A DNA stretch of 37,150 nucleotides from Balneolaceae bacterium (GTDB lineage: Bacteria > Bacteroidota > Rhodothermia > Balneolales > Balneolaceae): positions 1 to 37,150 of the forward strand of contig VEMX01000096.1 of the NCBI GenBank assembly GCA_009711805.1. Reading direction: 5' to 3'. A program made the translations under genes and the position numbers. This document shows, piece after piece, positions 23,407 through 27,018 of the stretch (position 1 is its first letter; each line of letters opens with the position of its first letter). Under the pieces are notes generated by a model that was given only the letters and a program-made list of their open reading frames with translations, ran no database searches and was not told the DNA's origin.

Positions 23407-23880
23407 TTAATTCACGAAATATTTTTCTTCTTCATCCTTAAAGGCATTCAATATACACTCTGAATCCTCACATGATAAAATCTTTTCCCGAAATGAAGCA
23501 CTGTTCATTAAACGGGAAATACGGCTCAACAGCTTAATATGGTAGCTGTTGTTCGAAACCGGCCCCACCAACAAAAATACCAAGCGTACAGGTTGTCCGT
23601 CAATTGAATCGAATGGAAGTGATTCTTTCAGCAATGCAAAGGCCGCCAGGTTGGCATCTACAGCTTTAGTTTTCGCATGTGGGATAGCCAACCCTTTACC
23701 AACGCCCGTTGACATAATTTTTTCACGTTCAAAAACGGCGGTGCGAATTTCCTCCAACTGCTCTTTAGACTCTACCTGTTCTTCCAGCGTATTTACCAGT
23801 TCATTAATTAATTCCTTCTTAGACTGTACTTCAAATAAAGGCAAAACAGTGTTTTGACTGAGCAGCGAAAATAAATTCAT
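23407..23880 (-). CDS. PTS IIA(Ntr)/fructose-type phosphocarrier
   Basis: 157 residues, one EIIA domain of the fructose/nitrogen class. The phosphorylated histidine is H68 in GKGLAIPHAKT. The downstream VRLVFLLVGP strand and HIKLLSRISRLM helix are conserved family features. No sugar-specific IIB/IIC domains are nearby, so a regulatory PtsN-like role is more likely than transport. It is the first gene of the operon with dacB, a sigma-54 regulator and folD, and PtsN-like proteins are often linked with sigma-54 functions. Confidence 0.9.
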   Translation of the reverse strand: MNLFSLLSQNTVLPLFEVQSKKELINELVNTLEEQVESKEQLEEIRTAVFEREKIMSTGVGKGLAIPHAKTKAVDANLAAFALLKESLPFDSIDGQPVRLVFLLVGPVSNNSYHIKLLSRISRLMNSASFREKILSCEDSECILNAFKDEEEKYFVN

Positions 23881-24326
23881 TTAGTAAATTTGGGGTTGAC
23901 TAACCTGTTAAATGATAGGATTAGAATATAGGCACCAGATGCGCAATCAATCAAAGATTAATTCCATAGATTTAGTTAAATGATTTTAGCTAAAGCTACT
24001 CTTTACAAATATAACCTTAGTGGTAAGCCAAGACAGTTCCCTAATTCACCTTAACTAATCTCATATACGTCCGGGATGTTAAAACCTGAGCATAGGAAAA
24101 CTTCAATTTCTGATTTTGAAATTCCTAGAAAAATACGTCTTCAACATCAATACAAAAGAATAATCAGAATCTTTTTTACGCCTTATTAAGAGACAAAAAT
24201 TCAAGGACTTATTTAAGGGATTTTTCAAGAATTGTTAATTCATAGATAGTATAATGGCAATCCCATGCATGAAGGTCGGTATGGAAAACAAGACATAAAT
24301 AATAACAAGAGTAAAAAAACACTGTT
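23881..24326. other. 446-bp intergenic region between divergent operons
   Basis: AT-rich, with no convincing open reading frame. It should hold the promoter of the minus-strand ptsN-like operon; a weak TTGATT-18 nt-TATATT pair can be read on the minus strand near 23920-23960. It should also hold the plus-strand promoter of the peptide cassette. An imperfect hairpin (AGGAA, TTCAA / TTGAA, TTCCT) lies at 24094-24126. Nothing else stands out. Confidence 0.5.
24250..24255 (+). promoter_or_regulatory. Possible -10 box of the peptide cassette
   Basis: A perfect TATAAT lies 71 bp before the peptide start codon. No good -35 hexamer is at standard spacing, which is common for Bacteroidetes-type promoters, so support is limited to position and the hexamer. 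Confidence 0.3.
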
Positions 24327-24590
24327 ATGAAATACACATCTAATGTTTTACATGCATCTATATTTGCAACTCTGATAGCTCTACTAATGGTCTTCAATTT
24401 TGAATATGCCTCGGTAGAAGAACAACCTCAAAGTTTGCTTCAACTATCAGAAGCAGGTAAGTGCACAATTACAATCGACTGTGGCAGTGATGACGAAGAG
24501 TGCTTCAGTTCAACCACTGGTAATACCACTGTAATTGTGAATGGAGGTGTTGAAAGTGTTGCATTCGAGGGAGACTGCCCTATAAGGTAA
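24327..24590 (+). CDS. Small exported four-cysteine peptide (NVEALA-like)
   Basis: 87 residues. Basic N-terminus, hydrophobic helix at about 7-24 (VLHASIFATLIALLMVFNF), then a polar stretch ending in QLSEAGK and a C-terminal part of about 42 residues with four cysteines (C46, C52, C59, C84). Size, leader and position before a 6-bladed beta-propeller gene recall the NVEALA-type peptides of Bacteroidetes, although the exact NVEALA string is absent. The paired cysteines suggest disulphides outside the cytoplasm, or a maturation step. An intrinsic terminator follows directly, so this gene is probably transcribed more than those after it. The function of this peptide class is not known. Confidence 0.7.
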   Translation: MKYTSNVLHASIFATLIALLMVFNFEYASVEEQPQSLLQLSEAGKCTITIDCGSDDEECFSSTTGNTTVIVNGGVESVAFEGDCPIR

Positions 24591-24611
24591 ACTCATCGCT
24601 AAGCGTAAAAA

Positions 24612-24645
24612 ACCTCTCACTTGAAATACAGTGAGAGGTATTTTT
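24612..24645 (+). terminator. Intrinsic terminator between peptide gene and beta-propeller gene
   Basis: A 10-bp perfect stem (24612-24621 with 24630-24639; arm ACCTCTCACT), an 8-nt loop and a T5 tract at 24641-24645. It lies 21 bp after the peptide stop and 18 bp before the next start codon. That position suggests partial termination, giving more peptide mRNA than downstream mRNA. Confidence 0.8.
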
Positions 24646-24663
24646 CAACCTAAGTATTATTAT

Positions 24664-25689
24664 ATGTCAAAATTAGCCCCTCTTATTGTTCTGTTATTAT
24701 TTCCATTTCAGTCCTATAACCAAATTTCAGTTGTGCAGACCGACAACCGTGAAAAAGTTCTCAATCTACATCTCGAGCATACTTATGAACTAGACAGAGG
24801 ATATTATTTGTCGTTCCTGGAATTTGAAAATGGAAGATTATATGGAATATGTCCACAACTACGCCGCATTTACTCCCTGGATATCAGGCAAAAAAGAATA
24901 AAGCATTTCACTTTTAACAAGGGAAAGGGACCAAATGAAATTTCGAGAGGCCCGTTTGGCATTTCCATCTCGGAGAAAAATATAGTCTTGAATGATACCG
25001 ATACCCAGCGAATGGTTTTGTTTGATTATAAAGGACATCCCACTCAAACCGTGCTATACAAGCAAAGCGAAGTATCAGTTGGTTCTATTTATAACATAAG
25101 GGGAGAAAACGCTTTCCTGAATAAAGTACTAAATCCGCTGAATGGCATACGTTACTCTATTCTGGATCCTGCCTTAGGAACCACCGTTTCAAGATACAAG
25201 ATACCCCCCGATTTGTTAAAACAACTCAAAAAAAGCAGAGATATCTTCCGTGTCAGTGGTTATGCAGCTTTTTCTGGTGATTACCTGATCCATGCAAACA
25301 AGTATTATGGAGACCTGCTAATGTGGGATAAGAAGAGTGGGAAATTTCTGAAAACCGTACAAGTCTACGATCCGGGTAACCCATCCAACCGTAAAGCACA
25401 GTTGGGAGATATGGTCGGAAACATACCCCCTCAAAATACTAAGGCTACTTTTCTACAGCTAACGGATAATCCTCTCTTAAAAGAGAGAATCTTTTTATTA
25501 ATAAATAGTAAAGATGGCACTTTCAAGAATACTACTGTGTATGATTATGATCTTCAAAAAGAAGAAATAGTACAACAATACAAACTACCTGCTCCTGCCA
25601 AACTGATACAAAGTAGCAACACTCATCTATTTGTGTACAGCGAAAAGCAAAGTGAAATCTATCAATATGAAATTGAAAAAAAGAACTGA
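24664..25689 (+). CDS. 6-bladed beta-propeller exported protein (BF3164-like)
   Basis: 341 residues from ATG at 24664; an upstream in-frame start at 24631 would lie inside the terminator and is rejected. A signal peptide covers about residues 1-20 (LAPLIVLLLFPFQSYNQ). The body is strand-rich with repeated blade-like segments (GRLYGICPQLRRIYSLD, FTFNKGKGPNEISRGPFGISI, IVLNDTDTQRMVLFD), and G-K-G-P-N-E matches the G-x-GPGE blade of the family. Such proteins are periplasmic or surface exposed and mostly uncharacterised. It is followed after 1 nt by a CxxC protein gene. A recognition or processing role for the upstream peptide is inference from synteny. Confidence 0.75.
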   Translation: MSKLAPLIVLLLFPFQSYNQISVVQTDNREKVLNLHLEHTYELDRGYYLSFLEFENGRLYGICPQLRRIYSLDIRQKRIKHFTFNKGKGPNEISRGPFGISISEKNIVLNDTDTQRMVLFDYKGHPTQTVLYKQSEVSVGSIYNIRGENAFLNKVLNPLNGIRYSILDPALGTTVSRYKIPPDLLKQLKKSRDIFRVSGYAAFSGDYLIHANKYYGDLLMWDKKSGKFLKTVQVYDPGNPSNRKAQLGDMVGNIPPQNTKATFLQLTDNPLLKERIFLLINSKDGTFKNTTVYDYDLQKEEIVQQYKLPAPAKLIQSSNTHLFVYSEKQSEIYQYEIEKKN

Positions 25690-25690
25690 T

Positions 25691-26263
25691 ATGAAAGTGA
25701 GTAGAAAAATATTATGGTCCGCAATTTTAATTCTGCTCAGCCTTAATATATATGCCCTCTATCAAAGCTATACCGCGCGGACTTCATTCAATAACCTCAA
25801 GCACGATCTTTCACTAATTTCAAATCGGTATAAAGTATGTGAGGTAGTCTCTTGCTTTCAGAAAAATTTTCTGGAAAACCATGTAAAGGATGTCCGTTTT
25901 ATGATCTACTTACCCCTGAAGAGCAACTGCATTAATTGTGTAAAAAGTAATAATGAAATACTACAACTTGTCATACAACATGGCCCGGAAATAGCTGATC
26001 ACCTCACTGTTGTATTACTCAACCCTTCCGATAATACCATCAGTTCCGACCTGAAAAAGGAAGGATTTCATGTACTGTCTGTAGAAGATCAAAGCCAAAT
26101 TTTCAAAGAAGAATTTAGGCTCAACTACCCGGCTTTATCTGTGATGGATAAACATTCAACCTTATTGAATCATGAGGTATTATCCAATGAAGTATTTGCC
26201 AGGGAACGGCAGCACGCATTCTGGCATGCAGCCATATACCTACTGAATCAAACGTATCCATAA
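25691..26263 (+). CDS. Membrane-anchored thioredoxin-like CxxC protein
   Basis: 190 residues from ATG at 25691, 1 nt after the propeller stop; earlier in-frame starts lie inside that gene. One N-terminal helix (about 7-25, ILWSAILILLSLNIYAL) anchors it with the rest in the periplasm. DVRFMIYLPLKSNCINC has a strand followed by C80-x-x-C83, placed as in thioredoxin/TlpA folds, and a later YPALSVMD resembles the cis-Pro strand (N-Y-P). Two further cysteines are C50 and C55. It may make or break disulphides, perhaps in the four-cysteine peptide two genes upstream. Sequence similarity to classical thioredoxins is low. Confidence 0.6.
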   Translation: MKVSRKILWSAILILLSLNIYALYQSYTARTSFNNLKHDLSLISNRYKVCEVVSCFQKNFLENHVKDVRFMIYLPLKSNCINCVKSNNEILQLVIQHGPEIADHLTVVLLNPSDNTISSDLKKEGFHVLSVEDQSQIFKEEFRLNYPALSVMDKHSTLLNHEVLSNEVFARERQHAFWHAAIYLLNQTYP

Positions 26264-26285: not shown

Positions 26286-26355
26286 AACAGAATGCCCACC
26301 TGCTGAAGGAGCAATCCCCGGATGCATAACGTTGGCGAAATGCTTACACTTGGAC

Positions 26356-27018
26356 ATGCACTGGATAAAAAGCTCAATCACTGTCCTAAGGAAAGATTTA
26401 CAGGTAGAACTGCGCAGCCGTTTTGCCCTCAATACCGTACTTGCTTTTGTAGCCGCTTCCCTCCTGTTGATTTTGTTTACCCTCCGAGCCGACCAGCTTG
26501 ATCCCATCCCCAAAACAGCCTTGGTTTGGATTATCATTTTATTTGCCGCACTCTCTGCGCTGGGCAGAAGCTTTCTTGCTGAGACTGACAAAAAAACCTA
26601 CAACCTCCTGCGTATTTATACTCAGGGAACGGTCGTTTATGCCGGCAAACTCCTGTACAATTTTTTATTCACATTGTTCATCAATGTGGTAACGTTTTCG
26701 ATTTATATTTTTCTGATGGAATTAAAGGTTGTTTCATGGAATGCCTTTTTAGTTATGCTGATTGTTGGCACAGCCGGCCTTTCGGGAGTAGCAACAATGA
26801 CGGCTGCTGTCGTATCACAGGCCGACCGCAAAGGAGCGATTTTTTCCGTTTTAAGCCTTCCCCTTTTTGTACCTTTAATGCTGCTGTTGGCGGACTTATC
26901 AAAATCGGCTTTTATTGATGGTAACGCTTCAACCAATAATATTACCGCTCTTATTGGTTTTGCCGGGGTTACTATAAGTGCCGGCATTATCTTATTTGAC
27001 TATATCTGGGAGGAATAG
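26356..27018 (+). CDS. ccmB: Haem exporter membrane subunit CcmB
   Basis: About 220 residues from ATG at 26356; a TTG at 26332 would add eight residues. Six hydrophobic helices fit the family. Conserved CcmB features: VLRKDLQVELRSRFALNTV at the N-terminus, IIILFAALSALGRSF, and a long GLSGVATMTAAVVSQADRKG segment followed by SLPLFVPLMLLLAD. CcmB works with the CcmA ATPase in cytochrome c maturation. No ccmA or ccmC is next to it in this window; holB follows after 9 nt. Confidence 0.9.
   Translation: MHWIKSSITVLRKDLQVELRSRFALNTVLAFVAASLLLILFTLRADQLDPIPKTALVWIIILFAALSALGRSFLAETDKKTYNLLRIYTQGTVVYAGKLLYNFLFTLFINVVTFSIYIFLMELKVVSWNAFLVMLIVGTAGLSGVATMTAAVVSQADRKGAIFSVLSLPLFVPLMLLLADLSKSAFIDGNASTNNITALIGFAGVTISAGIILFDYIWEE

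What the first reader, a model, noticed from the sequence alone, without database searches (positions are those of the whole stretch)
24327..26263. Peptide / beta-propeller / CxxC cassette: candidate exported-peptide system
A short exported four-cysteine peptide, a secreted 6-bladed propeller and a membrane-tethered CxxC protein lie in one run, the last two separated by 1 nt. The cysteine-rich peptide and an oxidoreductase-like partner suggest disulphide maturation or handling outside the cytoplasm; the propeller could bind or process the peptide. NVEALA-type peptides and BF3164-like propellers are known as families with no firm function, so the trio is a good candidate for a new signalling, toxin or surface system.
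Basis: partly seen in the sequence, partly recalled or inferred. Interest (0 to 1): 0.62.

Follow-up and report, generated by a model that had tools for sequence, protein, structure and literature searches.

The report
Three-gene cassette for an exported disulphide peptide
A three-gene cassette (a small exported cysteine-paired peptide, a beta-propeller and a membrane thioredoxin-like protein) recurs in the same order across a bacterial family and beyond, so it is a real, apparently undescribed system that very probably makes a disulphide-bonded peptide outside the cytoplasm, although what the peptide does is unknown.

Summary
The trio peptide (P, 24327-24590) - propeller (B, 24664-25689) - membrane-anchored thioredoxin-like CxxC protein (X, 25691-26263) recurs in the same order in 14 further Balneolaceae loci, and more distantly. 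At the 14 tested P-B-X loci a P-like peptide precedes B, against 1 of 176 background genes. B and X genes abut or overlap. P is separated from B by a hairpin in 15 of 18 gaps, against 1 of 32 controls. All 22 peptides examined carry an even number of cysteines (2, 4 or 6). Most carry an unusual two-part leader: a hydrophobic helix, then 15-32 residues later an AxA motif, as in NVEALA. In the window the cassette is an insertion: ptsN and ccmB are direct neighbours in ten relatives that lack it. Some loci add a signal peptidase I, a MauE-like redox protein or a small AraC/LuxR-type regulator. Known NVEALA peptides also sit next to propellers, and DUF6520 peptides next to MauE-propeller-like fusions. 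Best reading: P is an exported disulphide-bonded peptide, X (or MauE) handles its disulphides, B holds it, and it is made in excess. Toxin, signal or protein subunit is undecided.

The parts
24327..24590 (+). P: 87-aa exported cysteine peptide precursor (helix to about residue 23, candidate cut after S41-E42-A43, mature part with C46, C52, C59, C84)
   Evidence: homologous peptide in F. halophilus L116:5703-5942, BLASTP E 3e-8; C52/C59 and the GG motif conserved; leader and cysteine parity
24447..24455 (+). candidate processing site S-E-A (residues 41-43), in the position of the AxA/NVEALA motif of related peptides
   Evidence: position by inference; AxA at least 8 aa after the helix in 15 of 22 peptides, shuffle mean 2.9, maximum 9 in 5000; the window peptide itself has SxA, not AxA
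24612..24639 (+). terminator-like hairpin between P and B (10 bp stem, then ATTTTT)
   Evidence: z = -3.3; 15 of 18 P-B gaps have z about -2.4 or lower versus 1 of 32 control gaps
24664..25689 (+). B: secreted 6-bladed beta-propeller (341 aa), NHL/DUF5128/TolB_like type
   Evidence: 40% identical to L116:6001-6981; family profile hits NHL propellers; Foldseek; relatives match PF15869/PF17170
25691..26263 (+). X: membrane-anchored thioredoxin-like protein (190 aa); alternative start at 25667
   Evidence: 24% identical to L116:6988-7545 with CxxC and C50/C55 conserved; family profile hits thioredoxin oxidoreductases
25928..25939 (+). CINC active-site motif of X (residues 80-83)
   Evidence: C80 invariant in 16 X proteins, second Cys in 13 of 16
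23407..23880 (-). left flank: ptsN-type PTS EIIA gene, not part of the cassette
   Evidence: PF00359; in 10 relatives it lies 95-416 nt from ccmB with no cassette between
26332..27018 (+). right flank: ccmB, not part of the cassette
   Evidence: PF03379; empty-site comparison

Best explanation
The three genes are a self-contained accessory cassette that makes an exported, disulphide-bonded peptide. P is put across the inner membrane by its N-terminal helix. X, anchored in the same membrane with its thioredoxin-like domain outside, forms or corrects the peptide's disulphides. The ~44-aa cysteine domain is then cut free at the AxA-type site by a signal peptidase (a dedicated one is encoded in some loci). 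B, made together with X, holds the peptide, like the propeller half of a split thioredoxin/NHL-propeller protein (compare NHLRC2/SOQ1). The hairpin after P lets P be made in excess over B and X, which fits a released product better than a 1:1 subunit. Shown here: linkage, order, abutting B-X genes, hairpin, even cysteine counts, leader motif, insertion at an otherwise empty site. Inferred: topology, who oxidises whom, cleavage site, peptide-propeller binding, the stoichiometry and release. The most likely use of the product is action on other cells (bacteriocin-like or signal), from its diversity, patchy spread and multiple copies; this last step is the weakest.
For: X-family profile: 21 hits in 12 of 92 family genomes (9 genera), 8 in the own genome; P-B-X in one order at 15 of them, one with an extra gene between B and X. 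P-like ORF upstream of B at 14 of 14 P-B-X loci versus 1 of 176 background genes. B-X junctions -35 to +6 nt at 16 loci. Hairpin in 15/18 P-B gaps versus 1/32 control gaps. Even cysteine number in 22/22 peptides, 21/26 in a second set. AxA motif in 15/22, above all 5000 shuffles. Signal peptidase S26 next to X in 3 loci, MauE next to X/P in 2. Insertion between ptsN and ccmB. NVEALA peptides followed by a propeller-type protein, five of them Pfam-checked; DUF6520 beside MauE-propeller-like fusions. decRiPPter reported MauE/MauD with precursors of 8 or more Cys in Streptomyces candidate RiPP families (PMC7794033). NHLRC2 pairs Trx-like and NHL-propeller domains around a CCINC cleft (PMC6107167).
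Against: No experiment. In 3 of 16 X proteins the second active-site Cys is lost, so X cannot be a classical oxidase there. NHLRC2's Trx-like domain shows no insulin-reductase activity (PMC6107167). The window has no linked peptidase, regulator or transporter. Immunity and target are unknown. The hairpin might stabilise mRNA rather than set a ratio. Peptides in the counts are partly related, so the p-values are optimistic.
Confidence: 0.55

Rival explanations
1. P is not released but is a small disulphide-rich subunit of the propeller, matured by X or MauE, as the small subunit of methylamine dehydrogenase is matured by MauD/MauE and sits on a propeller subunit. The product is a periplasmic or surface two-subunit protein.
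For: Small Cys-rich chain + propeller + Trx-like/MauE partner recalls the mau gene set (family knowledge; MauE/MauD role cited in PMC7794033); MauE found in related loci and fused to a propeller-like domain beside DUF6520 peptides.
Against: No conserved Trp for a TTQ/CTQ cofactor in P; P sequences vary greatly while B is kept; the hairpin after P suggests unequal expression; one locus can carry two peptides for one propeller (L014, L075, L083).
Confidence: 0.22
2. The unit is a redox or metal sensor/buffer: P is a thiol or metal-binding peptide of the envelope, X keeps it reduced (TlpA-like), and B is a scaffold.
For: X resembles reducing TlpA/ResA-type proteins as much as oxidases; solitary AraC/LuxR-type regulators lie upstream at several loci.
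Against: Even-only cysteine counts fit disulphides better than metal sites; no conserved metal-binding motif or His; linkage to the heme exporter gene ccmB is incidental, since ptsN-ccmB is the ancestral order.
Confidence: 0.12
3. The adjacency is a chance run of three unrelated exported-protein genes.
For: DUF5128-type propellers are very numerous (at least 31 matches in some genomes) and many have no such partners.
Against: Same order at 15 loci in the family and beyond, 14/14 versus 1/176 for the peptide, abutting B-X genes, shared hairpin position.
Confidence: 0.02

Closest known systems
NVEALA peptides (PF14055) with TolB_like/BF3164-type propellers (PF15869) in Bacteroidia
   Same: Short precursor with helix, long spacer, then (E)ALA-type motif about 25 residues after the helix and a Cys-rich end; directly followed by a propeller-type protein in the loci read, with a hairpin in 4 of 5 gaps.
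   Different: Window P does not match PF14055; no X protein was seen next to the NVEALA genes read; NVEALA cysteine counts are often odd (3 of 6).
DUF6520 peptides (PF20130) beside MauE (PF07291) proteins with a propeller-like C-terminal part
   Same: Exported peptide with 4 (once 2) cysteines, thiol-redox membrane partner and probable propeller.
   Different: Ordinary signal peptide, MauE instead of X; window P is only E 0.03 to the model; the propeller nature of the fused part rests on a weak profile match (E 4.5e-5, probability 69%) and no PDB profile hit.
NHLRC2 / SOQ1 (Trx-like + NHL propeller in one chain)
   Same: A thioredoxin-like domain with C-I-N-C motif paired with a six-bladed NHL propeller (PMC6107167).
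   Different: Two adjacent genes here, with a dedicated peptide; the NHLRC2 paper found no conserved operon for bacterial homologues and reports no peptide partner.
mau methylamine dehydrogenase maturation (MauD/MauE) and MauE/MauD candidate RiPP clusters of decRiPPter
   Same: Cys-rich small product plus thiol-redox membrane proteins (PMC7794033).
   Different: Other phylum, no other mau genes seen at the loci, a 6-bladed NHL-type propeller, no quinone-forming Trp.

Membership tests
NVEALA (PF14055) | match to the Pfam model over the 27-bit cut-off | tested here: not met
   window P: no match
NVEALA (PF14055) | helix + spacer + ALA-type motif + Cys-rich end, next to a propeller | tested here: inconclusive
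   architecture is shared, but the window motif is SEA, not ALA
DUF6520 (PF20130) | match over 25.4 bits | tested here: not met
   15.1 bits, E 0.03
TolB_like / DUF5128 propellers (PF15869, PF17170) | match over cut-off for window B | tested here: not met
   no match for B nor for its 40% relative; other B proteins of the set do match
6-bladed NHL-type beta-propeller fold | about 24 strands in 6 blades | tested here: inconclusive
   profile hits NHL propellers, all-beta model with propeller matches but pLDDT 55
Thioredoxin-like (TlpA/ResA) proteins | profile similarity to thioredoxins and CxxC | tested here: met
   family profile: 8t4c E 4.1e-7; CINC at 80-83
Thioredoxin-like (TlpA/ResA) proteins | thiol-disulphide exchange activity | not testable with these tools
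   needs an assay
RiPP / bacteriocin | processed, secreted product with biological activity | not testable with these tools
   only genomic hints
Methylamine dehydrogenase-like enzymes | cofactor-forming Trp in the small chain | tested here: not met
   no conserved Trp in P; window P has none

The most novel reading that the evidence does not exclude
A phylum-wide class of extracytoplasmic disulphide-peptide systems exists in Bacteroidota and relatives: a two-part NVEALA-type leader, a peptide made in excess behind a hairpin, and a propeller plus thioredoxin-like (or MauE) clamp that folds, holds and releases an intercellular toxin or signal. NVEALA, DUF6520 and the P-B-X cassettes would be its branches.
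Probability: 0.35. Interest if true: 0.8.

Novelty: new variant of a known kind. Interest (0 to 1): 0.62.

Why it matters
It gives a testable context to protein families with no known function (NVEALA, DUF6520, DUF5128/TolB_like propellers), by placing them in one kind of gene unit with a redox partner. If the peptides are released, these bacteria carry a large unexplored store of disulphide-bonded peptides. It also offers a simple bacterial model for the thioredoxin plus NHL-propeller pairing seen in NHLRC2 and SOQ1.

Tried and rejected
Heme-export link through ccmB: rejected, ptsN-ccmB is the ancestral order and the cassette is inserted. Quinone-cofactor enzyme like methylamine dehydrogenase: no conserved Trp. 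AlphaFold with two sequences: X model unusable, B only fold-level. Loci from the genome search were not sent to structure prediction, since its rule names other sources. Viral scan gave nothing. Rfam gave nothing. NCBIfam gave nothing useful. Literature: no paper with NVEALA or DUF6520, none describing the trio, within an open-access library only. An early family search used a wrong Pfam accession (DUF4488) and means nothing. The profile of the MauE-fused propeller-like part found no solved structure.

Full report
The three open frames are present as described. P (24327-24590, 87 aa) has a hydrophobic segment ending near residue 23 and four cysteines after it. B (24664-25689) is a secreted propeller without lipobox. 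X starts 1 nt after B, or at 25667 with overlap, and carries one membrane helix and a CINC motif. Pfam finds nothing over cut-off in any of the three; P is 15.1 bits to DUF6520, below its cut-off.

Close relatives are rare: single-sequence searches of 58 related genomes gave only weak hits. Two of them, in another genus (L007) and on another contig of the same genome (L008), showed again a peptide, a propeller and a CxxC protein. A profile of four X proteins then found 21 places in 12 of 92 family genomes, nine genera, eight of them in the window's own genome. Reading their surroundings, 15 have P-B-X in this order (one with an extra gene between B and X), two belong to a rearranged double unit on contig C50 (X-B-P-X-B), one is cut by a contig end and three look unrelated. 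A wider profile added a locus of another family in the same class (L094), more distant ones (L101; L105 with MauE-P-X-B) and one more in the family, L109. The nearest named carrier is Fodinibius halophilus, so the family is Balneolaceae. There B is 40% identical, X 24% and P matches with E 3e-8; C52 and C59 are kept while C46 and C84 are both absent, as expected if C46-C84 and C52-C59 are the two disulphides (inference).

Chance is excluded. With fixed criteria, a P-like ORF lies within 250 bp upstream of B at 14 of 14 P-B-X loci and of 1 of 176 background genes.

Anatomy. B and X abut or overlap: junctions from -35 to +6 nt, most often a 4-nt overlap, which suggests translational coupling. 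P is set apart by a hairpin: 15 of 18 P-B gaps have a folding z of about -2.4 or lower, against 1 of 32 same-strand control gaps; in the window it is terminator-like. Z-scores use single-base shuffles. The part of P after the helix has an even number of cysteines in 22 of 22 peptides (2, 4 or 6) and in 21 of 26 of a second set, the exceptions being NVEALA and DUF5128-linked peptides. In 15 of 22 an AxA motif stands 15-32 residues after the helix and before the first cysteine; 5000 shuffles gave at most 9. Ordinary signal peptides are cut about 3-7 residues after the helix (general knowledge), so this leader is unusual. The NVEALA motif lies at the same place, while DUF6520 peptides have ordinary signal peptides. 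In the window the motif is S-E-A.

Partners. X belongs with thioredoxin-like oxidoreductases by profile, although three of 16 lack the second active-site cysteine. B belongs with NHL-type propellers. Three loci encode a signal peptidase I next to X and two a MauE protein. Several have a small AraC- or LuxR-type regulator upstream of P; the window has none. One relative unit (L014) has two peptides, a propeller and an ABC transporter.

Insertion. In ten relatives ptsN and ccmB are divergent neighbours 95-416 nt apart; in the window they are 2451 nt apart. Homology to the relative G003 stops at 23997 and resumes at 26338. The cassette therefore most likely arrived as a unit, and ccmB next door is incidental.

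Connections. In one Bacteroidota genome six NVEALA peptides are each followed by a propeller-type protein (five tested by Pfam: TolB_like, DUF5128 or DUF4221). DUF6520 peptides lie beside proteins whose N-terminal part is MauE and whose C-terminal part is propeller-like (profile match E 4.5e-5, probability 69%; no solved-structure hit). MauE/MauD with cysteine-rich precursors have been proposed as candidate RiPP clusters in Streptomyces (PMC7794033). NHLRC2 and SOQ1 join a thioredoxin-like domain and a six-bladed NHL propeller around a CCINC cleft (PMC6107167), which makes B plus X look like a split version; this is resemblance, not membership.

Conclusion. A real, recurrent, apparently mobile three-gene unit whose product is very probably an exported disulphide-bonded peptide. 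Disulphide handling by X, holding by B, cutting at the AxA site and release are inferred with decreasing confidence. Limits: no experiment; ORFs in related loci were read mechanically; peptides are partly related, so p-values are optimistic; the literature library is open access only.

Noticed in passing
L085 (own genome contig C86):139-678, 739-882, 3956-4207 and 4931-5143: An X gene is followed by fragments of a C39-peptidase-like gene (DCGPTCL motif), and further on lies a separate double-glycine-leader peptide rich in cysteine (KVKGGD...), apparently with broken export genes.
   Followed up: partly
L013/L014 (own genome contig C50): Further peptide/propeller units share this contig with very large insecticidal-toxin-complex-like genes and transposase genes; not analysed further.
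   Followed up: no
L128-L135, L146 (Bacteroidota relatives): DUF6520 peptides lie beside MauE proteins fused to a ~350-aa propeller-like domain that matches no Pfam family.
   Followed up: partly
window 25838-25855 (X residues 50-55): X of the window and of F. halophilus share a second cysteine pair (C50, C55) just outside the membrane helix, absent from other X proteins.
   Followed up: no
L014:3743-7261: A unit with AraC-like regulator, two similar six-cysteine peptides, a lipoprotein propeller and an ABC transporter (ATPase and membrane protein), without X.
   Followed up: partly
L083 and L084 with their X proteins: Where X has lost the second active-site cysteine (CxxS), the linked peptides have only two cysteines in two of three cases.
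   Followed up: no
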